Positions 227 to 9,365 of a stretch of 13,947 nt of DNA are shown piece after piece. The notes below the pieces were generated by a model, which did no database searches, had not been told where the DNA came from, and worked only from the letters and a program-made list of their open reading frames with translations. The DNA comes from a candidate division TA06 bacterium DG_78 (lineage in GTDB: Bacteria > Hydrothermota > Tepidihabitantia > SM23-42). The stretch covers positions 1 through 13,947 of the forward strand of contig LJNI01000048.1 of NCBI GenBank assembly GCA_001303225.1, read 5' to 3'. The translations under genes and the position numbers were made by a program. Each line of letters begins with the position of its first letter. The stretch's first letter is position 1.

Positions 227-402
227 ACATTAATATGATTGCAATCGAACTGTAGTAAAATTCACCATCTTTTAACAAGCCCCCAAAGTGCAAAAAAACA
301 CCCACTAAAATTCCATGAAATTTCAAGACTTTTTGTGTACAAACTAACCCATTCTGGCACACATATTGCTTATTCAATAACACAGATCTTTAAAAACAAA
401 AA

Positions 403-410
403 AAAGGAGG
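403..410 (+). promoter_or_regulatory. Strong ribosome binding site fixing the precursor start
   Basis: AAAGGAGG sits five bases before ATG 416. The frame stays open back to 239, but the upstream part has no such site and its composition looks non-coding, so 416 is the start. Confidence 0.85.
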
Positions 411-415
411 CTATC

Positions 416-712
416 ATGCCAACATATGAAACTCATTCAGCAAGTTGTTCTGGACTCGGTGGTTGTGAAGCGCCGTGTTCGTGTGGCAGTTGTTGGGTAA
501 CCTGCACTGCCCTCTGTGAAGCAGCATGCTTGACAGCATGCGGAGCATCTGGTGGAGTTGGAGCAGTTTTGGGGTCAGTAGGAGGATCTGAACTGAGCTC
601 TGAAGGCGGTACAGCTTCTGTCGATGCTGGTAATCAGCTTGCGAATCAATCAGGAATCGATCAGTATGTTGAACATATTGCTGCAGTCGTCTGGGGATGG
701 TTTATTTCTTAA
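416..712 (+). CDS. Cys-rich RiPP precursor peptide with CX3C repeats (98 aa)
   Basis: This is a small ribosomally made peptide, probably the substrate of the two radical SAM enzymes downstream. Nine Cys are at residues 11, 17, 21, 23, 26, 30, 34, 38 and 42. The last five form an exact CX3CX3CX3CX3C ladder, so they would lie on one face if helical. Residues 43-72 are rich in Gly, Ser and Ala with several GG pairs. Residues 73-98 contain no Cys and end in a hydrophobic stretch with two Trp (VVWGWFIS). Only ten residues precede the first Cys, so there is no ordinary N-terminal leader; the long C-terminal part may serve as a follower recognition segment, or the enzymes may bind within the Cys region. 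Cys-rich substrates of SPASM enzymes (SCIFF, ranthipeptides, CXXX-repeat peptides) are the closest analogues I know of, but I do not recognise this sequence. The start is set by AAAGGAGG at 403-410. Thioether cross-linking is inferred from context. Confidence 0.8.
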   Translation: MPTYETHSASCSGLGGCEAPCSCGSCWVTCTALCEAACLTACGASGGVGAVLGSVGGSELSSEGGTASVDAGNQLANQSGIDQYVEHIAAVVWGWFIS

Positions 713-771
713 GCACTTAGCGCTGTGATTGCAATGGATATCCTAGTCTGAGATATCACCCAAAGAATCAA

Positions 772-812
772 AAGACAGCTATAAGCCTATACGCTAGCCT
801 TATAGCTGTCTT
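772..812 (+). other. 14-bp perfect hairpin between precursor and maturase genes
   Basis: Arms 772-785 (AAGACAGCTATAAG) and 799-812 are perfectly complementary over 14 bp around a 13-base loop. Only two T end the right arm, and ACTTATAATC follows, so this is not a textbook terminator on the + strand. It may act as a partial terminator or as a 3' end that protects a short precursor mRNA, letting precursor accumulate above the enzymes. A weaker dyad (GATATC 737-742 and 752-757) lies just upstream. Confidence 0.7.
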
Positions 813-840
813 ACTTATAATCAGAACACCGTAGACAATC

Positions 841-868
841 TTGACTTTTTGAGAATAATACTTATAAT
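841..868 (+). promoter_or_regulatory. Sigma-70-type promoter for the radical SAM/ABC genes
   Basis: TTGACT (841-846), a 16-base spacer and TATAAT (863-868) form a near-consensus promoter. Transcription should start near 875, about 20 bases before the ATG at 895, leaving room for GGAGG at 883-887. The same -35 hexamer and spacer length recur at 5863 and 11419. Confidence 0.75.
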
Positions 869-894
869 ATATAAGTATAAATGGAGGTTTATCA

Positions 895-2436
895 ATGACT
901 ACACAGACTAATACAACTCTACTCTTCAAAACCATGAGTAATGGTGAATACATATATGACGATAATTCAGGGGCTATTTTCCCGGTTAATGAGTTGTTAA
1001 AAAAAGCGATCGATCTATATCCAAAGTATGACATCGATACTGTTCGTGCAAAGCTGATAAAAGAATATCCTGAAACATATGTTAATGGTGCTTTGAAATT
1101 CATAGAGCGATGGTGTCAGACATACGGCAGATTTTGCAGTTCACCGAGAGGAAAAAATGGACTCCTTCAGAACGTAGAATCCTTTAAAACAGAAGATATT
1201 ATAGAGCAATTTCTTCATTATCCAACAATGGCGAAGCAGTTAATATTAAATTTAACTGAGGATTGTAATTTGCGGTGTAAATACTGTATATATTCGGATA
1301 ATTATACATACTCAAGAAAACCGAGCAAAAATGCTATGAAACTAGAAACAGGGAAAAGGGCTATAGATTACTTTTTTAAACTTAACGAGAAAGCGGCAAT
1401 TAGAAATCCCGGCAAAAAAATTGCTATTAGTTTCTATGGTGGGGAGCCGCTGCTTTGTTTATCAATCATGGATAAATTAATTCAATACGCCCGAGAAAAT
1501 ACACCTCTCCGTATCAATTTTGTCATGACAAGTAATGGTATGTTATTGAATGATGAGGTGTCCGATTTTATAGTAAAGAATAATATATTTTTCGCCATAA
1601 GTTTAGATGGCAATAAAGAAAACCACGACCGAAACCGAGTAACTGTGACTGGACGTGGTTCATTTGATATTGTTAACAAAAATATCAAAAGGTTTTTTGA
1701 ACGTCATCCTGATTATTTAACACAAATGGGATTTATATGTGTATATGATTGGAATACTGATTTAGAAGCGGTTGAACGTTTTTTTGAAGAAAATCATTGG
1801 AATGTTATGTTTGCTGATCCTGTAGCACCGGGTGGTCAAGTAGATAACTACTATGACCGTTTTACAAAAAGTGAAAGAGAGAGGTTTTTCAAACAAGAAA
1901 TTCATATGTTGAAAAGATTTAAAAATGATTTGGAGAATAAAAAGGACCCCGCTCTTTTTTCAAAGGTTTACTTTGCCCCTAGATTCATTCCTCTTTATCT
2001 ACATATGAGAGCGTTCGATAAAAGAATGAATATAATTCCTTTTACCGTTACCTGTCTTCCTGGAACAAAAATAAATGTAAGGGTAGATGGCACTTTTGAT
2101 ATATGTGAGCGTGTAAATCCCACAATGCCCATAGGAGACGTGAAAAATGGTCTTGATTGGCATGTAATCGCCAATCTTATTCGGAAATACAATAATGCGC
2201 TGGGAGATAAATGTTTATCGTGTCCGATTACAAAAATATGTGATGTTTGCTTTGGTGATGGAAATGCTATGCAAAATGCATCATTTTTAATTCCCGTAGA
2301 TAGATGTAAATCACTTCTAAAATACCGATTGGGTAACTTATCCCTGTTTTATTCACTATTGGAAATTGATCCTGATGCCGCCATCAACTGGCTTGGACAA
2401 TGGTTCAAAAAACCCGAGAGAGAATATTTCTTTTAA
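895..2436 (+). CDS. Radical SAM/SPASM peptide maturase 1 (513 aa)
   Basis: This is probably a cytoplasmic iron-sulfur enzyme that uses S-adenosylmethionine radical chemistry to modify the Cys-rich peptide encoded upstream. The SAM-cluster motif CX3CX2C is C124, C128 and C131, within 'TEDCNLRCKYC'. The SAM-binding GGEP is residues 182-185. A seven-Cys SPASM domain follows (C387, C404, C440, C443, C449, C452, C471), with the CX2CX5CX2C core expected to hold two auxiliary 4Fe-4S clusters. Residues about 8-105 resemble the small peptide-recognition (RRE/PqqD-like) domain seen at the start of SCIFF and quinohemoprotein maturases, judged by pattern only. All cluster ligands are present, so it should be active. 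GGAGG seven bases before ATG 895 fixes the start. The next gene begins 16 bases after its stop, indicating co-transcription. Family membership is clear; the exact cross-link (thioether to alpha, beta or gamma carbon) cannot be read from sequence. Confidence 0.93.
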   Translation: MTTQTNTTLLFKTMSNGEYIYDDNSGAIFPVNELLKKAIDLYPKYDIDTVRAKLIKEYPETYVNGALKFIERWCQTYGRFCSSPRGKNGLLQNVESFKTEDIIEQFLHYPTMAKQLILNLTEDCNLRCKYCIYSDNYTYSRKPSKNAMKLETGKRAIDYFFKLNEKAAIRNPGKKIAISFYGGEPLLCLSIMDKLIQYARENTPLRINFVMTSNGMLLNDEVSDFIVKNNIFFAISLDGNKENHDRNRVTVTGRGSFDIVNKNIKRFFERHPDYLTQMGFICVYDWNTDLEAVERFFEENHWNVMFADPVAPGGQVDNYYDRFTKSERERFFKQEIHMLKRFKNDLENKKDPALFSKVYFAPRFIPLYLHMRAFDKRMNIIPFTVTCLPGTKINVRVDGTFDICERVNPTMPIGDVKNGLDWHVIANLIRKYNNALGDKCLSCPITKICDVCFGDGNAMQNASFLIPVDRCKSLLKYRLGNLSLFYSLLEIDPDAAINWLGQWFKKPEREYFF

Positions 2437-2452
2437 CAAAAGGACAATAAAA

Positions 2453-3766
2453 ATGGATTATTTCCGCTTTTCACCTGAGTGCCATTATGTTAAAGGGTCA
2501 ATAAGAGGAACATTATATAGCATCATAACCGGCAAGGTTATTCATTTCTCTAAAGTTGAAACAGAAATAGTTAACTGTTGGTTGACAAATGAACGGGTTG
2601 ATACGGTTGAATCAAAGTATCCAAAGGTTGCGAATGAACTTTTAAATCACCTCATTAGTGAAGGACTTGGATTTTTGTATTCAACACCAGTATATACCCA
2701 ACCCTACGAACCAAATCAGCCATATTATAAACTCGACGAGTCAGTTGAACCTCCACCAGTGATAAAAAATGTGTTTATCCAGTTGACCGATAGATGCAAT
2801 GCAAACTGTTTATTCTGTAAAAATAAAGATTACTATGTTTCCCGGGGATGTATTACCTGCCTACGTTGGGGCCAAGGGCAATATCGAGATGCAAAAACCA
2901 CCAATAAATTAAACAATGATAATATGGAAAAACTGCTGAATCAATTAGCTGGCCTCGAAACCCAGGTATTGTCATTTTCAGGAGGAAATCCTCTGATGGA
3001 ATGGGCTAAACTTGTTGATATTGTAAAAAAAACGACTCAATATCGACCCTCAATAAGATTTTTAGTTCATACAAATGGTTTTGGGTTAAATGAGAAAATC
3101 GCAAAAGATGCTGTGGAGTTAAATATCAGATTCAATTTTACCGTTTTTTCCGATTCTCAAGAAGGCTACCAAAAAATAACCGGAACAGGAGAACTATTTA
3201 AATTATTGCTCAGTGCCGTAGAAATGTGCAAAATGCATCAGATTATTTATGCCATTTCTGTCCTTGTTTCTCCAGACTCACGGCAGCATTACAATAAGAT
3301 TTGCCAGTTCGCTCAAAATTTAGGTGGGGCTTCACTGTTTTTTAGTGAAATATTTCCTAAAACAGAAACTAAGAACCCGATGGTTAGTCTTCCAGTTGGC
3401 GAAGAAGCCGGTGAAAAGTCCTTTAGTTCATCCGATCCTCAGAAATTTGTTGAGGCAAAGAATTTTAGCAAATGTCTAAATGGTACCCTTGCTGTATCAG
3501 AAAACGGAATGATATTACCGTGCCCCATGTGGATTGAGTCAATAACTGAGATTCCAGAAGACGATATATTTTCCCTTTTCCGAAATGAAAAGCATAAACC
3601 ATTTTGGGAATTGAACAAAAGCAAAGTTTCAACCTGCAACCGATGTGAATTTCGATTCCTATGTAATGACTGTGCTCTTATCGACCACTATCGTAAAGAA
3701 GATCCATCAATACATAATGCAGTTTGCACCTACAACCCTGAAATAGGTGAATGGATTTCATATTAA
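2453..3766 (+). CDS. Radical SAM/SPASM peptide maturase 2 (437 aa), with extra CxxC
   Basis: This second radical SAM enzyme of the cluster is not a duplicate of the first. The SAM cluster motif is C115, C119 and C122. A further CxxC (C133, C136) lies eleven residues on, in a segment ending 'WGQGQYRD', which most family members lack. The usual GGEP is GGNP here. The SPASM domain is C341, C357, C395, C398, C404, C407 and C425. Residues 1-100 ('YFRFSPECHYVKGSIRG...') recall the N-terminal recognition domain of grasp-with-SPASM maturases ('C..VKG..R'), by memory of the pattern only. The frame is open from ATG 2366, but that start would overlap the previous gene by 71 bases; ATG 2453, with AAAGGAC at 2438-2444, leaves a normal 16-base gap and starts at the conserved domain. 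It probably makes a second type of modification or acts on the C-terminal half of the precursor; that is inference. Confidence 0.9.
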   Translation: MDYFRFSPECHYVKGSIRGTLYSIITGKVIHFSKVETEIVNCWLTNERVDTVESKYPKVANELLNHLISEGLGFLYSTPVYTQPYEPNQPYYKLDESVEPPPVIKNVFIQLTDRCNANCLFCKNKDYYVSRGCITCLRWGQGQYRDAKTTNKLNNDNMEKLLNQLAGLETQVLSFSGGNPLMEWAKLVDIVKKTTQYRPSIRFLVHTNGFGLNEKIAKDAVELNIRFNFTVFSDSQEGYQKITGTGELFKLLLSAVEMCKMHQIIYAISVLVSPDSRQHYNKICQFAQNLGGASLFFSEIFPKTETKNPMVSLPVGEEAGEKSFSSSDPQKFVEAKNFSKCLNGTLAVSENGMILPCPMWIESITEIPEDDIFSLFRNEKHKPFWELNKSKVSTCNRCEFRFLCNDCALIDHYRKEDPSIHNAVCTYNPEIGEWISY

Positions 3767-3838
3767 TATACTGCATTGGAAAATTATAAGACTTCTAAAT
3801 CGCACTACTATCATACTATCATTTGGCAAATTTGTTAA

Positions 3839-5710
3839 ATGGTAGACGTAACCAGTCTGTTCAAAATACCGAAACAAAAAACCAATGCGAAATTTTCACT
3901 TTTAATTCGTGCGCTTGTTTTTGTTTGGAAAACGAGTAAGTTCTCTACTGCTCTGATGTTGATAATCAAAGTAATATCCGCCCTCTTCCCTGCGGCAAAT
4001 TTATTTGTGGTAAAAAATGTAATTGATGGTATAACCAGTATCGTGATTAATAACAGCAGTGGTGGTTTGCGCAATCTATCCACATGGATTGCATTATTAA
4101 TTGGCTTATGGGTTTTACAACATATCATTAGTACTTTACAGACAATCACTTCATCATGGTTGAATCTGTGCGTTGAACAAAATTCCCAAATAGCTATTAT
4201 GCGCAAGTGTTCAAAGTTTGATGTCGCTTTTTTTGAAAATCCAACTAATTTAAATATGTTGCAAAATGCTTATATAGGATCATCGGGTACTATTAATCAG
4301 GTAATGACTATTTTCTTCAGTATTATTGAAATAAATATTACCCTTATAAGTTTTGTCGCCATCATTTTTCGATTACACTGGGGAGCTTTTTTAATTATTA
4401 TTGCGGCAACGCTGCCGCGAATTTTGTCTAATCGATACTTTGCCAAAAAGAGGTGGGAAATAACAACAGGTCTTGTGGAACCCCGTCGCATGAGTAGCTA
4501 TTACTCCGGACTAGTAATACAAAGAAACGTCGCCAAAGAGATCCGGCTCTTTGGTTTATTTAAACACTTTTTCGATCGATTCGTATTTTTCATAAATCAA
4601 TTCAGACAGATTGAAAAGAATTATATTCGAAAACAGGGAGTAATTAACTTTTTAGTTAATCTAATTACTATTGCAGGTTCTTCAATTATCTGGGTTTATG
4701 TTATACACAGGGCTATCAATGGAACGATCAGCATTGGCGATATTGTACTTTATACTGGAGCCGTATCAAGTTTTCAAGGTGGTCTGACCGCGATGTTTTC
4801 GTTTTTCGGACAGATTTTCCAGAATGTCCTTTTTTTGGGAAATTTCTTTTCACTATTAGACCTTAATCCTGAAAAAATTGAGGGAGCACTTAAAGGTCCA
4901 GCGGATCTAATTAGTTATCGGAGTGGTAATGTAAAACCATCGACAGTGCTCGAGAAAGGTATTGAGTTTAGAAATGTTTCATTTAAATATCCGCAAACTA
5001 ATAAATTAGTATTGAAAAATGTCAATTTCTCTTTACCTCCTAAGGAATCAGTTGCCATTGTTGGAGAAAATGGTGCAGGAAAGACTACCCTGATAAAACT
5101 GTTGGCTCGCCTCTATGACCCGACTGAAGGACAGATACTCATTGATGATAAGGATATTAGAGAATACGACCTGGAAAGTCTACATAGGATCTTCTCAGTA
5201 ATTTTTCAAGATTACATATGTTATCCCTTAACTGTTCGCGAAAATATTGGCTTTGGAAATATAGAAAAAATTGATGACATATCAGCTATCCAGAAAGCTT
5301 CAAAAAAAGCAGGAGCACATGAGTTCATTGAGCGATATCCCAATAAATATGAGACCTATATCGGCCGGATATTTCAAAAATCGAGCATAGACCCCTCGAT
5401 AGGAGAATGGCAGAAATTATGTCTTGCTCGAGCCTTAATGAAAGAAGAGGCGCCGATATTAATTTTAGATGAACCAACCGCAGCTCTTGATGTATATTCA
5501 GAATATGAAGTGTATAAAAGTTTTAGTAAAATGATGGTCGATAGGCTGACAATAATTATCTCTCATCGTTTTTCCACGGTCAGAGCCGCACATCACATTC
5601 TGGTTCTCCATGAGGGACGTCTCATAGAAGAGGGGTCTCATGAAGAGTTGATGGAACAGGATACATTATATAAAGAAATGTATAGTATTCAAGCAGACCG
5701 ATATAAGTAG
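3839..5710 (+). CDS. ABC exporter, membrane domain fused to ATPase (623 aa)
   Basis: This is probably the inner-membrane exporter of the modified peptide, working as a dimer. About six membrane spans fill residues 20-330, followed by a nucleotide-binding domain (about 375-615). Walker A is GENGAGKT (409-416), the Q-loop is Q457, Walker B ends at D544-E545, and the H-loop is H576. The signature motif reads SIGEWQ (520-525) instead of LSGGQ; GEWQK variants are common among peptide and lantibiotic exporters. There is no N-terminal C39 peptidase domain, so this protein cannot itself cleave a double-Gly leader. The start at 3839 has no clear ribosome binding site (TTGGCAAA upstream is poor), but no better start precedes the first membrane span. 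It follows the second maturase after 72 bases without a visible terminator, so it is likely in the same transcript. Confidence 0.92.
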   Translation: MVDVTSLFKIPKQKTNAKFSLLIRALVFVWKTSKFSTALMLIIKVISALFPAANLFVVKNVIDGITSIVINNSSGGLRNLSTWIALLIGLWVLQHIISTLQTITSSWLNLCVEQNSQIAIMRKCSKFDVAFFENPTNLNMLQNAYIGSSGTINQVMTIFFSIIEINITLISFVAIIFRLHWGAFLIIIAATLPRILSNRYFAKKRWEITTGLVEPRRMSSYYSGLVIQRNVAKEIRLFGLFKHFFDRFVFFINQFRQIEKNYIRKQGVINFLVNLITIAGSSIIWVYVIHRAINGTISIGDIVLYTGAVSSFQGGLTAMFSFFGQIFQNVLFLGNFFSLLDLNPEKIEGALKGPADLISYRSGNVKPSTVLEKGIEFRNVSFKYPQTNKLVLKNVNFSLPPKESVAIVGENGAGKTTLIKLLARLYDPTEGQILIDDKDIREYDLESLHRIFSVIFQDYICYPLTVRENIGFGNIEKIDDISAIQKASKKAGAHEFIERYPNKYETYIGRIFQKSSIDPSIGEWQKLCLARALMKEEAPILILDEPTAALDVYSEYEVYKSFSKMMVDRLTIIISHRFSTVRAAHHILVLHEGRLIEEGSHEELMEQDTLYKEMYSIQADRYK

Positions 5711-6743: not shown

Positions 6744-7985
6744 ATGATACCTTTACTTCTCTTTTTGCAGATTGACTCATTATCACTCAATGAGGCAATT
6801 GATATTGCCTTTTCTCAAAGTCCTACTTATTACGAATCAAAAATTGCATTGGATCAATCACGCATTCTCTTTTATCAAAGTCTCTCAAATCTCTTGCCAA
6901 CTGTTTCTGTAACAGCTGATTATACGAAAAGTGAATACAGCGGTGTTACAACAAGTGGCTATACAGGTTTTGCGAGTCTTACCGTACCACTTTTTGATGT
7001 CGACGTTATCAGTTCTATCCTCATTGCTGGTCGACAAGCAAAAGGGACCACGATACAGCACAAGGCAAATATATCCTATTTGATCCTACAATTAAAAACT
7101 GCATACTATAGTCTTATTAACACCCAGAATCTCTTAGCATCATCAGAGATTACCATAGAACGGGCTCAAGAAAATTTAAAACTGGTCGAAACAAAATATG
7201 AACTCGGGTCTGCATCGAGATTCGAAATGCTCCAGGCAGAGGTCTTTTACCTACGCAGCCTGCAGGACAGGACACGGGCAAAAACGCAGAAAATAAGTGC
7301 CCAGGAACAGCTCAAATCTATTCTCGGACTACGTAATGATATCTATCCAACTGATACGTTAATCGCTCCTGACAACACTGAATTTCCGCCCCTCGATTCA
7401 CTCATTTCAATCTTACAGGAGGTAAATTATAATATTCAGATCGCCCAGGAAATGAGGAACATCGCCAAATTAGAATTAGTTTCATCATATCTCGCACTGT
7501 TACCAAAGGTTTCATTCTTCTACGGCTACAGCGTAACTTCTGATTCACTCATTTTTGATTTTGAGTATTATCGTGATAATGCAGTTAAAAATTATGGCAT
7601 AAGTGTTTCTTTTCCTATCTTTGAGATAAAATCAGTCATTTTTAACTACCTCAATGCAAGAAAAGATTTACAATTAAAAGAGTTTGAAAAACAGCGGACG
7701 ACACTAGAGGCAGAAAAATCATTGCGCACAACCTATTATACACTACAAGAATCTTACGATAATCTTCATTTTGCGAAAAAGAGCCTCGAGGCTGCAAGCG
7801 AAGCAGCCACAATTGCAAAAGAACAGTACGCGCTCGGCATTATTTCATTTTTAGACTTCCTGGATGCTGAAGAGGGTTTGTATGAAGCAAAAGTTTCTTA
7901 TACTTCGGCATTAAGTGATTTTCATATTCAGAGAGCGAATTTTTCGTATGTTTTAGGTGCGTTGACCTTTAGTAAGGAGAAATGA
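6744..7985 (+). CDS. TolC-family outer-membrane efflux protein (413 aa)
   Basis: This is the outer-membrane and periplasmic channel component of a tripartite export system. It shows the two-repeat outer-membrane-efflux (OEP) layout of TolC. The first repeat begins at 'SLSLNEAIDIAFSQSP' (about residues 12-27), with long helices around 100-195. The second runs from about 225 to the end, with long coiled-coil helices at 300-390. Length is close to the family norm. The signal peptide is unusually short: only MIPLLLFLQ precedes the mature-looking sequence, with no basic n-region. A stop (6732-6734) rules out a longer start in frame, and no strong ribosome binding site precedes ATG 6744. Its stop overlaps the next ATG (ATGA, 7982-7985). 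It should work with the MacA- and MacB-like proteins downstream. Confidence 0.88.
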   Translation: MIPLLLFLQIDSLSLNEAIDIAFSQSPTYYESKIALDQSRILFYQSLSNLLPTVSVTADYTKSEYSGVTTSGYTGFASLTVPLFDVDVISSILIAGRQAKGTTIQHKANISYLILQLKTAYYSLINTQNLLASSEITIERAQENLKLVETKYELGSASRFEMLQAEVFYLRSLQDRTRAKTQKISAQEQLKSILGLRNDIYPTDTLIAPDNTEFPPLDSLISILQEVNYNIQIAQEMRNIAKLELVSSYLALLPKVSFFYGYSVTSDSLIFDFEYYRDNAVKNYGISVSFPIFEIKSVIFNYLNARKDLQLKEFEKQRTTLEAEKSLRTTYYTLQESYDNLHFAKKSLEAASEAATIAKEQYALGIISFLDFLDAEEGLYEAKVSYTSALSDFHIQRANFSYVLGALTFSKEK

Positions 7986-8212
7986 TTTACCCCGCCCCTC
8001 CAAAATGGTTCTATGTTTATCTAGTAAGAAATAAAAAGGGCAGAGTATATTCAACAAGGAGGAAGTTACCAATGGAACTTATATATTTTGAAGCATATAA
8101 ATATAGACAGAATGCTTTTGAGCGAGAAAAAAAACTTAAACATTATGGCAGTGCTTTAAGGAATTTAAAGTTAAGATTAAAAGATATTTTTTCAAAAGGA
8201 GGGGCGCGGTGA
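7982..8212 (+). CDS. Shortened GIY-YIG nuclease-family protein, catalytic core deleted (76 aa)
   Basis: The N-terminus carries the first half of the small GIY-YIG fold ('FYVYLVRNKKGR', residues 10-21) and the C-terminus carries the conserved tail ('LPMELIYFEAY...REKKLKHYGSALRNLKLRLK'). In family members known to me, roughly 20-25 residues holding the YIG strand and the catalytic Arg helix lie between these parts. Here they are missing, and the chain passes straight from KKGR to VYSTRR. The frame is intact, so this looks like an in-frame deletion, possibly between repeated KKG/KG-R coding sequences. One catalytic Tyr and the Arg are gone, so nuclease activity is unlikely; the Glu in 'REKKLK' remains. 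The start ATG is shared with the tolC stop (ATGA), and AAGGAG lies upstream. It sits inside an export operon where no nuclease is expected, and within the cassette described at 7986-8210. Confidence 0.8.
   Translation: MIYPAPPKWFYVYLVRNKKGRVYSTRRKLPMELIYFEAYKYRQNAFEREKKLKHYGSALRNLKLRLKDIFSKGGAR
7989..8001 (+). repeat. Left terminal inverted repeat of the GIY-YIG cassette
   Basis: ACCCCGCCCCTCC; complementary to 8198-8210 at 12 of 13 positions. It encodes the PAPP residues near the start of the small protein. Confidence 0.75.
8198..8210 (-). repeat. Right terminal inverted repeat of the GIY-YIG cassette
   Basis: GGAGGGGCGCGGT; partner of 7989-8001. It encodes the terminal GGAR residues and now also provides the GGAGG ribosome binding site for the macA-like gene at 8214. 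Confidence 0.75.
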
Positions 8213-8213
8213 A

Positions 8214-9365
8214 ATGAAAAAGAAACCTTTAATTATAATCAGCGTCATTGTCGTTATTATCCTCATTATAGTCTTGAACCTCACTCAAAAAGAAACCAGG
8301 GAGCACGTTGAGGTCACGATTGTAACAAAAGGCAATATCATGTCAGTAGTAACAGCTTCAGGTGAATTACGTGCAAAGTCCCAAGTGGATATATCTGCAG
8401 AAACCATTGGAAGAATTAAAAAAATTTACTATCGAGAAGGAGATTATGTAAAGAGAGGTGATCTTATCATCGTTCTCGACGATGTCCAGGCACAGGCAAA
8501 TCGAAAACTCGCAGAAGCACAAGTGAAACAGGTAGCGCAAGAACTCTTACGTGGCCAAAAACTGTTTGAGAAAAACTTGATTTCTCAGGAGAGTTTGGAA
8601 AAATTACAATTAGCGTACGAATCGGCAAATGCACAGTATGAGCAGGCAATGGATGCATACAGAAAAACAAAAATCTATGCTCCTATTTCAGGCAAAATTA
8701 TGAAAATCAATGTTGAAGAGGGTGAAACCGCAGTCATGGGAACAATGAATTACGCAGGAACAGTATTGATGACCATTGCGGATCTCTCCAGTATGATTGC
8801 TGTGGTCACCATTGATGAAACTGATGTTCCTGTGGTCAAGGTTGGTCAAGATGCAGAAATCACTGCCGATGCTCTCCCTGATTCTGTATATAAAGGAGAA
8901 ATAACAAAGATTGGTCTCATGCCCATCACCAGTCTGTTGACTACAGAAAAGGTTACTGATTTTGAAGTCGAGATAGAAATGAGTGATTTCTCGCCTTTAC
9001 TCCGGCCTGGCATGAATGTCAAAACAGATATCACCACGAATGAAAAAGAAGATGTTTTGACTATTCCTATCCAGGCATCGGGCAAACGAAAAATCGATGA
9101 CAAAACTGCAGAAACAGTCTTCGTCGTCCAGAATGGAAAAGCACATCTCATGGAGATTACTACTGGTGTATCGAGTGATACTCAGATTGAAATCATCTCT
9201 GGAATAGCAGAAGGCGATACATTAATCATTGGGCCGTATCGCGTGCTTTCGAAAATAAAAGATGGGCAACAGGTAAGCTTTGAAATATCAGAAGAAGACA
9301 CCTCATCACAATCGTATAAGGTGAACCCACGACGCATAGTAAGGGCATTGAAAAAACGAATATAG
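8214..9365 (+). CDS. MacA-like periplasmic adaptor (membrane fusion protein, 383 aa)
   Basis: This protein links the inner-membrane ABC transporter to the TolC-like channel. An N-terminal membrane anchor (residues 5-22, after a KKK start) is followed by a beta segment, the first half of a lipoyl-like domain (about 55-90, 'GRIKKIYYREGDYVKRGDLI'), and a short alpha-helical hairpin (about 92-150). The second half of the lipoyl domain is at 152-190 ('IYAPISGKIMKINVEEG'). Beta-barrel and membrane-proximal domains run to about 350. The hairpin is shorter than in E. coli MacA. ATG 8214 lies one base after the cassette gene's stop and uses GGAGG within the cassette's right repeat. Its stop is two bases before the next GTG, so the genes are translationally linked. 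The substrate is unknown; MacA-type adaptors serve peptides, lipopeptides and macrolides. Confidence 0.9.
   Translation: MKKKPLIIISVIVVIILIIVLNLTQKETREHVEVTIVTKGNIMSVVTASGELRAKSQVDISAETIGRIKKIYYREGDYVKRGDLIIVLDDVQAQANRKLAEAQVKQVAQELLRGQKLFEKNLISQESLEKLQLAYESANAQYEQAMDAYRKTKIYAPISGKIMKINVEEGETAVMGTMNYAGTVLMTIADLSSMIAVVTIDETDVPVVKVGQDAEITADALPDSVYKGEITKIGLMPITSLLTTEKVTDFEVEIEMSDFSPLLRPGMNVKTDITTNEKEDVLTIPIQASGKRKIDDKTAETVFVVQNGKAHLMEITTGVSSDTQIEIISGIAEGDTLIIGPYRVLSKIKDGQQVSFEISEEDTSSQSYKVNPRRIVRALKKRI

What the first reader, a model, noticed from the sequence alone, without database searches (positions are those of the whole stretch)
7979..8217. A GIY-YIG mini-cassette behaves like a self-contained mobile element inserted on a start codon
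A small GIY-YIG gene in an export operon is bounded exactly by 13-bp GC-rich inverted repeats (12/13) and flanked by GAAATGA on both sides. Removing cassette plus one heptamer rebuilds GTAAGGAGAAATGAAAAAG, a perfect tolC/macA ATGA overlap. The host supplies the cassette's ATG, and the cassette's right repeat supplies a new ribosome binding site for macA, so insertion is nearly neutral. The repeats encode the protein ends (PAPP and GGAR), so mobility signals and coding sequence are merged. I know of no described element of this design, though free-standing GIY-YIG genes are common in uncultured bacteria.
Basis: partly seen in the sequence, partly recalled or inferred. Interest (0 to 1): 0.88.

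Follow-up and report, generated by a model that had tools for sequence, protein, structure and literature searches.

The report
Tiny nuclease element invading start codons
The small gene is a worn, internally deleted copy of what looks like an undescribed family of mobile DNA, only about 300 base pairs long when complete, that slips into the start codons of bacterial genes and gives each gene back a new ribosome-binding site and start codon.

Summary
The GC-rich inverted repeats are real, and the cassette belongs to a mobile-element family. Full relatives (265-313 bp, one longer) in Omnitrophota, Planctomycetota and Stahlbacteria encode only a GIY-YIG nuclease (90-106 aa, mostly) whose ends are written by the inverted repeats. 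Eleven of 12 close loci have an exact 4-bp flanking duplication, mostly TGAA (8 of the 12 genes are unbroken). The same genomes carry 23-118-bp copies with matching ends. Of 42 elements, 34 have an exact 4-bp duplication and none of 2, 3 or 5-8 bp. Of the 27 with TGAA, 26 have a GTG or ATG that opens a long frame at the right junction, mostly host genes; background 269 of 1099. Relatives show empty sites for a full element (rfbC-rfbA) and for a short one at this same tolC-macA junction in another genus. The window copy lacks the YIG/Arg/His part of the nuclease, so it is not self-contained. That the GIY-YIG protein moves the element is inferred. Ten literature searches listed no description (no preprints held).

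The parts
7990..8001 (+). left terminal inverted repeat, CCCCGCCCCTCC (pairs further out to 7986); encodes the PAPP of the protein
   Evidence: same ends in relatives
8198..8209 (+). right terminal inverted repeat, GGAGGGGCGCGG; encodes the C-terminal GGAR and holds the GGAGG ribosome-binding site for macA (8198-8202)
   Evidence: same ends in relatives
7982..8212 (+). 76-aa ORF, an internally deleted GIY-YIG nuclease gene: lacks about 22 aa with YIGCTSNLxKRLxEH; deletion point near 8030-8040
7986..7989 (+). 4-mer abutting the left end, TTTA (most of the family has TGAA here; TTTA or its complement TAAA is a duplication seen at other elements)
8210..8213 (+). 4-mer abutting the right end, TGAA: probable right copy of the target duplication; also gives the stop codon of the ORF
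7979..7985 (+).
8211..8217 (+).
6744..7985 (+). tolC-like outer membrane efflux gene upstream of the insertion
8214..9365 (+). macA-like periplasmic adaptor gene downstream of the insertion

Best explanation
The cassette is an internally deleted copy of a small mobile element. The full element is about 265-313 bp (343 in one copy with nested inserts). It consists of two terminal inverted repeats (CCCCGCCC(C/T)TCC... and variants) and one GIY-YIG nuclease gene that includes both repeats. It inserts in one orientation at TGAA-like sites and duplicates 4 bp (shown by comparison). Most sites are the TGAA inside ATGAA start codons. The left copy keeps the host's ribosome-binding site and ATG, which now start the nuclease gene (MNPAP). 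The right repeat supplies GGAGG or GGAAGG and, with the right TGAA copy, a new GTG or ATG for the host gene (seen in the sequence; effect on translation inferred). Internal deletion yields 23-118-bp copies that keep the ends and that moved in the past. The inferred step: the GIY-YIG protein, whose closest solved folds are UPF0213 and the branched-DNA nuclease Slx1, recognises the folded repeats, frees or copies the element and opens the target with a 4-nt stagger. The window copy has lost catalytic residues and could only be moved in trans, if at all.
For: Relatives share both ends with the same coding. 11 of 12 close loci have exact 4-bp duplications, one of them TGAG/TGAG (by eye). 42 elements: 34 exact at 4 bp, 0 at 2, 3, 5-8 bp; permuted flanks mean 21.9, max 28; among the 15 not TGAA/TGAA, 7 match against a permuted mean of 1.7, max 7. 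Of 27 TGAA elements, 26 have a GTG/ATG opening a long frame at the right junction, one of them leading into a second element; stricter start-codon test on the empty site 24 of 27 against 45 of 1099 background TGAA sites. Orientation: ORF follows TGAA in 12 of 12 close loci, TGAG in two of them; the bases TA follow the left end in 21 of 27 and the right end in 0 of 27. Empty sites: G001 against G011 at tolC-macA, G092 against G066 at rfbC-rfbA. Two 26-bp palindromes with TTTA duplications nested inside a nuclease gene. End variant shared by gene and short copies within a genome. 101 of 118 bases of a short copy align to the full element at the same junction of a relative. 26 of 30 best family genes in Omnitrophota (21 of the 24 not seen before) have inverted repeats above the shuffled 95%; other GIY-YIG genes 6 of 25. 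Purifying selection: dN 0.15, dS 0.78. Tyr, Arg, His, Glu columns invariant in 16 of 16 (catalytic roles recalled).
Against: No activity is shown. 4 of 12 genomes with short inverted pairs had no family protein at E 1e-12, and the loose protein set is not associated with them (8 of 12 against 146 of 273, p 0.56). The window's own flanks do not match (TTTA/TGAA) and its repeats alone do not beat shuffles. With the same blind test only 7 of the 12 close loci exceed all shuffles, 12 of 27 for L079-L105 and 9 of 53 for L106-L158. 8 of 42 elements lack an exact duplication (two are mispairings by my script). 4 of 12 close genes are broken. The start-codon bias may partly be survival. GIY-YIG enzymes are known as hydrolytic nucleases, not transposases (recalled).
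Confidence: 0.8

Rival explanations
1. The ends are moved in trans by an ordinary transposase (DDE type); the GIY-YIG gene is a passenger trapped in a short non-autonomous element.
For: Terminal inverted repeats with a short duplication are typical of DDE elements (recalled). 4 of 12 genomes with short copies lacked the family protein.
Against: In the place lists (truncated; G069, all 55 exact ends) I saw no inverted pair of these ends 0.4-3 kb apart except where each end had a nearer mate; I did not read the genes between. The nuclease gene is the only cargo in the full copies read, from several phyla, with active-site columns invariant. Short copies associate with the close protein: 4 of 11 against 7 of 273, p 3.6e-4, leaving out G066; the E 1e-30 bound was chosen after seeing the list.
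Confidence: 0.15
2. A REPIN/RAYT-like system: palindromes spread by a Y1 (IS200-like) transposase.
For: Y1 transposases occur in 7 of the 9 genomes tested; the architecture (gene between inverted repeats plus short inverted pairs) is alike.
Against: None found in G070 (a full copy and three short pairs) nor in G068; these genomes may be incomplete. A 4-bp target duplication is not made by Y1 enzymes (recalled).
Confidence: 0.04
3. A free-standing homing endonuclease with chance or terminator-like inverted repeats.
For: GIY-YIG domain; PHROG matches to homing endonucleases. Many other GIY-YIG genes lack such repeats.
Against: Homing gives no 4-bp duplication and no gene-less copies with the same ends (recalled); sites here are many unrelated genes.
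Confidence: 0.03
4. The window locus alone is an old resident gene with coincidental repeats.
For: Repeats of this copy alone do not beat shuffles.
Against: The junction has a spacer of 8 nt or less in 25 of 29 other loci; the ends match the family; a short copy with the same ends sits before a purD-like gene in the same genome.
Confidence: 0.02

Closest known systems
Insertion sequences and MITEs (terminal inverted repeats, target duplication)
   Same: Inverted repeats, exact short duplication, empty sites, short deleted copies with the same ends
   Different: No DDE, HUH, serine or tyrosine transposase in the element; only a ~95-aa GIY-YIG gene; less than half the length of the smallest ISs I know of (recalled); the ends are coding and carry translation signals
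UPF0213 / YhbQ-like GIY-YIG proteins (1zg2)
   Same: Domain, size and sequence (E 3.3e-9; fold E 4e-4)
   Different: GIY-YIG genes of other subfamilies in relatives mostly lack terminal repeats (6 of 25 above the shuffled 95%, 4 of 25 above all shuffles)
REPIN-RAYT systems
   Same: A gene between inverted repeats plus many short inverted pairs in the genome
   Different: Different enzyme; 4-bp duplication; placed at start codons rather than between genes (REPIN features recalled)
Rickettsia palindromic elements
   Same: Short palindromes inserted in frame in genes (described in a review, PMC10969869, passages seen)
   Different: No associated gene known to me; here a gene with matching ends is found and most sites are start codons
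GIY-YIG insertions in rRNA genes of CPR bacteria (PMC11270868)
   Same: L097 is such a case: a GIY-YIG gene with 19-bp inverted repeats inside a 16S rRNA gene. The paper's passages say these insertions resemble neither intron class and seem outside homing
   Different: The paper's text holds no 'inverted repeat', 'palindrom' or 'target site duplication' (0 occurrences)

Membership tests
Insertion sequence / MITE in the broad sense | terminal inverted repeats | tested here: met
   26 of 30 best family genes in Omnitrophota above the shuffled 95%; 12/13 in the window
Insertion sequence / MITE in the broad sense | target site duplication | tested here: met
   family: 34 of 42 at exactly 4 bp; the window copy itself: not matched (TTTA/TGAA)
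Insertion sequence / MITE in the broad sense | empty site in a relative | tested here: met
   tolC-macA and rfbC-rfbA
Insertion sequence / MITE in the broad sense | encodes or uses a known transposase | tested here: not met
   16 of 16 members scanned match GIY-YIG, some also T5orf172 or MUG113 (kin of GIY-YIG, recalled), and no transposase family
GIY-YIG catalytic domain (PF01541) | score over the Pfam cut-off | tested here: met
   family: 16 of 16 members match at E 1e-3, first member 59.8 bits; window copy 22.0 bits, below 22.6
GIY-YIG catalytic domain (PF01541) | catalytic Tyr/Arg/His/Glu residues (roles recalled) | tested here: not met
   window copy lacks the YIG, Arg and His columns; family invariant at Y12, Y23, R33, H37, E69 in 16 of 16
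Homing endonuclease | copies itself only into the cognate allele of one site | tested here: not met
   sites are many unrelated genes
REPIN-RAYT | Y1 transposase (PF01797) present with the repeats | tested here: inconclusive
   present in 7 of 9 genomes, not found in G070 and G068
REPIN-RAYT | no target duplication (recalled) | tested here: not met
   34 of 42 with an exact 4-bp duplication
Autonomous transposable element | own protein moves the element | not testable with these tools
   needs a mobility assay

The most novel reading that the evidence does not exclude
A new class of transposable element: the smallest autonomous DNA transposon known (about 265-313 bp), moved by a ~95-aa GIY-YIG nuclease through folded terminal repeats. 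It targets start codons in one orientation and replaces the translation start of the gene it hits, so that it can sit in essential genes; its deleted offspring would be the source of families of bacterial palindromic repeats.
Probability: 0.6. Interest if true: 0.96.

Novelty: categorically new. Interest (0 to 1): 0.9.

Why it matters
If the nuclease moves the element, this adds an enzyme class to the known ways of DNA transposition and gives by far the smallest autonomous mobile element I know of. It would also explain in simple terms how an element can insert at the start codons of genes that read like lepA or pfk without killing the cell: it hands the gene a new ribosome-binding site and start codon. 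And it offers a testable origin for short palindromic repeats of uncultured bacteria, including GIY-YIG insertions in rRNA genes that were reported as unlike either intron class and outside homing (PMC11270868, passages).

Tried and rejected
Window repeats alone: score 10 against shuffle maxima 11 and 12, so I did not rest on them. General GIY-YIG genes as the family: the hits fetched from 61 relatives are mostly other subfamilies without such repeats; rejected as evidence. Pattern search for CCCCGCCCCTNC in the host family: 5 of 23 genomes matched; of the four hits outside G000 three (L075, L077, L078) looked like coding sequence by eye and none showed a paired end. Loose co-occurrence was negative (p 0.56); only the close protein set (E 1e-30, chosen after seeing the list, and including genomes that I had first reached through this family) associates. 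A tree of 14 proteins had 1 starred branch of 11 and cannot show transfer between phyla; the window's nearest row by path was an Omnitrophota copy. dN/dS rows with L087 came from a misplaced start and are dropped; 6 of the 15 remaining pairs were saturated. Phages: 1 record of 50,697 with a distant match; plasmids 6 of 72,556, all under 60% identity; viral contigs: 31 pattern matches, none a relative. My early reading of L090 as lying in a tRNA gene was not borne out by Rfam. My first count of start codons (30 of 34) included three in-frame sites inside genes (GTC, GTC, GTA); one search gives the cleaner count. Literature searches; none listed a bacterial GIY-YIG element with inverted repeats and a target duplication; titles and abstract starts seen, passages of two papers read.
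Full report
WHAT IS IN THE WINDOW. The ORF 7982-8212 (76 aa) lies between a tolC-like and a macA-like gene. The arms 7989-8001 and 8198-8210 match 12 of 13. Only 2 of 493,452 position pairs 180-215 bp apart in the window reach 12/13, but in a free local search the pair scores 10 against shuffle maxima of 11 and 12. GAAATGA occurs on both sides, but the left copy does not touch the arm; the 4-mers that do touch the 12-bp ends are TTTA and TGAA. The protein lacks about 22 residues that hold the YIG motif, the Arg and the His of the family, and Pfam sees only profile positions 33-70, just under its cut-off.

THE FAMILY. The protein search gave 25 hits, the window's own protein among them. Most of the full-length ones begin MNPAP or alike and end GGAG or alike: ATGAACCCCGCCCCT and GGAGGGGCGGGGTGA, so both repeats are coding. 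A scan of named genomes kept 80 of 98 loci, of which I read 27, L079-L105. Twelve (L079-L089, L103) are close members, in Omnitrophota, a Phycisphaerae bacterium, Scalindua and a Stahlbacteria bacterium; in 8 of the 12 the reading frame is unbroken (broken: L081, L086, L089, L103). By eye, 11 of the 12 have an exact 4-bp repeat abutting the ends, ten TGAA and one TGAG (L080, whose downstream gene begins ATGAGC); L083 has TGAG/TGAA. The element is 265 bp in L080, 280-313 bp in the others measured and 343 bp in L079 (less the outer pair). In L081 and L087 a gene-less palindrome and a full element stand in tandem with TGAA three times. L079 carries two 26-bp palindromes nested in frame inside its nuclease gene, with TTTA three times.

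SHORT COPIES. In 12 genomes that hold a family gene, one end was sought with one mismatch (the place list is truncated). G069 had 55 exact ends, and none in the reversed-pattern control; in several of the 12 genomes the one-mismatch count was no higher than its control. I fetched 40 stretches and paired the ends (30 of 35 with an exact 4-bp duplication). Over the loci held from these genomes and G000, 42 distinct elements were found: 34 have an exact duplication of 4 bp and none of 2, 3, 5, 6, 7 or 8 bp; permuting the right flanks gives a mean of 21.9 and a maximum of 28. Among the 15 that are not TGAA/TGAA, 7 match, against a permuted mean of 1.7 and a maximum of 7; the matched sequences are TAAA, TCAA, TGGA and TCAG. 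Of the 8 misses, L011 and L079 are wrong pairings by my script. The end variant CCCAGCCCCTCC is shared by the full element and most short copies of G066, and CCCCGCCCTTCC by those of G069. The insides of several short copies look like remnants of the nuclease gene. At one junction (I read the neighbours as alaS and hisD, recalled) G070 has a full element and G066 a 118-bp copy, 101 of whose 118 bases align to it.

START CODONS. In 30 of the 34 elements with a duplication a frame of at least 60 codons, the longest of the three, runs on from the right junction. Three of these are in-frame sites inside genes (GTC, GTC, GTA); 27 read GTG (26) or ATG (1), and one of the 27 leads into a second element (L087) rather than a host gene. 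Of the 27 elements with TGAA, 26 are of this kind; among 1099 TGAA sites in the flanks 269 meet the same frame test. On a stricter test of the empty site it is 24 of 27 against 45 of 1099. I read several of the genes from their first residues as lepA, pfk, nadD, truB, yidC and a shikimate kinase (recalled, no database call). The left copy is ATGAA in 22 of 27, so the host's own ribosome-binding site and ATG lead into the element. The right repeat ends GGAGGGGCGGGG, GGAAGGGCGGGG or alike, and its last base plus TG makes GTG (or ATG). The element has a polarity: TA follows the left end in 21 of 27 and the right end in 0 of 27. Because TGAA-like sites between genes are also common, I read the bias as preference plus survival, without being able to separate them.

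EMPTY SITES. The tolC-macA spacer is between -7 and 8 nt in 25 of the 29 loci other than the window's; it is longer in L047 (78), L069 (48), L074 (139) and L049 (109). L049 is G011, which reads GCGATAATGAA, then a 106-bp insert with ends TCCAGCCCC.. and ..GGAGCGGGA, then TGAAAAAG, where G001 of the same genus reads GCGATAATGAAAAAG. So this junction was hit twice in one family. G011 also holds a full element with an unbroken gene (L320), the same sequence as L083 from a Stahlbacteria genome, which places the window's family in or near that phylum (inference). For a full element, G066 has ..GGAGGAAACCATGAA, 295 bp, TGAAAGGCATAG, where G092 has ..GGAGGAAATAAATGAAAGGCGTG. The script found the downstream start in 11 of 15 loci; in the 10 outside G066 the 60 nt shown upstream hold no such ends, and in 7 of them they hold the end of the rfbC-like gene.

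BREADTH. Of the 30 best family genes fetched from 285 Omnitrophota genomes, 26 are bounded by inverted repeats above the shuffled 95%; six of the 30 were known to me before, and of the other 24 it is 21. End types vary. In the host's relatives, 10 of 30 fetched loci are above all shuffles, the window and L320 not among them. Of other GIY-YIG genes, 6 of 25 are above the 95% and 4 of 25 above all shuffles (four truncated loci left out). The same blind test puts 12 of 27 loci L079-L105 (7 of the 12 close ones) and 9 of 53 of L106-L158 above all shuffles, so it misses imperfect ends. Short inverted pairs (26-56 bp) occur in 12 of 285 genomes, 0 in the reversed control. They associate with the close protein set (E 1e-30): 4 of 11 against 7 of 273 with G066 left out, p 3.6e-4. 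They do not associate with the loose set (8 of 12 against 146 of 273, p 0.56), and 4 of the 12 genomes had no loose hit.

THE PROTEIN. Family members match PF01541 in 16 of 16, and Y12, Y23, R33, H37 and E69 are invariant (catalytic roles recalled). The model (pLDDT 79.9) is nearest to UPF0213 1zg2 and, more weakly, to Slx1. L084 against L088 has dN 0.15 and dS 0.78. Selection keeps the protein working while the element moves, as expected if the protein serves the element.

MECHANISM. Seen in sequence: ends, duplication, orientation, empty sites, deleted copies, placement at start codons. Inferred: the nuclease binds and cuts the folded ends, and the target is opened with a 4-nt stagger. An Slx1-like, structure-specific cut at the foot of a hairpin or cruciform fits the palindromic ends, but GIY-YIG strand transfer is not known (recalled), so repair-based copying is equally possible. 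For the window: most likely an insertion at the TGAA of the tolC stop, with a 3-bp change on the left, and an in-frame internal deletion; the macA ATG at 8214 is kept, and the GTG at 8209 does not open macA (its frame stops after two codons).

RIVALS. A hidden DDE element with the same ends was not seen in the place lists but is not excluded. Y1 transposases occur in 7 of 9 genomes, not found in G070 and G068, and would not leave 4-bp duplications (recalled).

KNOWN OR NEW. Ten literature searches listed no bacterial GIY-YIG element with terminal repeats and a duplication. The library lacks preprints and most subscription journals. A paper on rRNA insertions in CPR bacteria says that GIY-YIG genes lie in insertions unlike either intron class and seem outside homing (PMC11270868, passages); L097 shows such a case, a GIY-YIG gene with 19-bp inverted repeats inside a 16S rRNA gene that Rfam matches over its whole length.

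Noticed in passing
window 239-5710: A small Cys-rich ORF, two radical SAM/SPASM ORFs (best NCBIfam CcpM 237 bits and SPASM_w_grasp 75 bits, both below cut-off) and an ABC exporter: looks like an undescribed radical-SAM peptide (RiPP) locus.
   Followed up: partly
L097 3001-3279: GIY-YIG gene with 19-bp inverted repeats inside a 16S rRNA gene (Rfam 2559-4409) of a Niyogibacteria genome.
   Followed up: partly
L100, L101, L105 (also L102 by eye): In Patescibacteria, GIY-YIG genes are followed at once by a complete tRNA gene (L100 3250, L101 3269, L105 3240) and preceded by what look like partial tRNA copies with small palindromes (by eye). Rfam called no tRNA near the gene in L090 and L102.
   Followed up: partly
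L128, L148, L150: GIY-YIG genes flanked by palindromes such as CACTGAGCGCAGTCGAAGTG: the link between this nuclease and palindromic repeats may be wider.
   Followed up: no
L094, L095 (Scalindua): An inverted-repeat GIY-YIG copy seems to interrupt an ORF that reads like a four-helix-bundle (23S intervening sequence) protein (by eye, name recalled).
   Followed up: no
L007 1501-1610 (G000 C65): 110-bp gene-less inverted pair with 24-bp perfect arms reaching TTGACT, followed by a TATAAT-like box; no 4-bp duplication.
   Followed up: no
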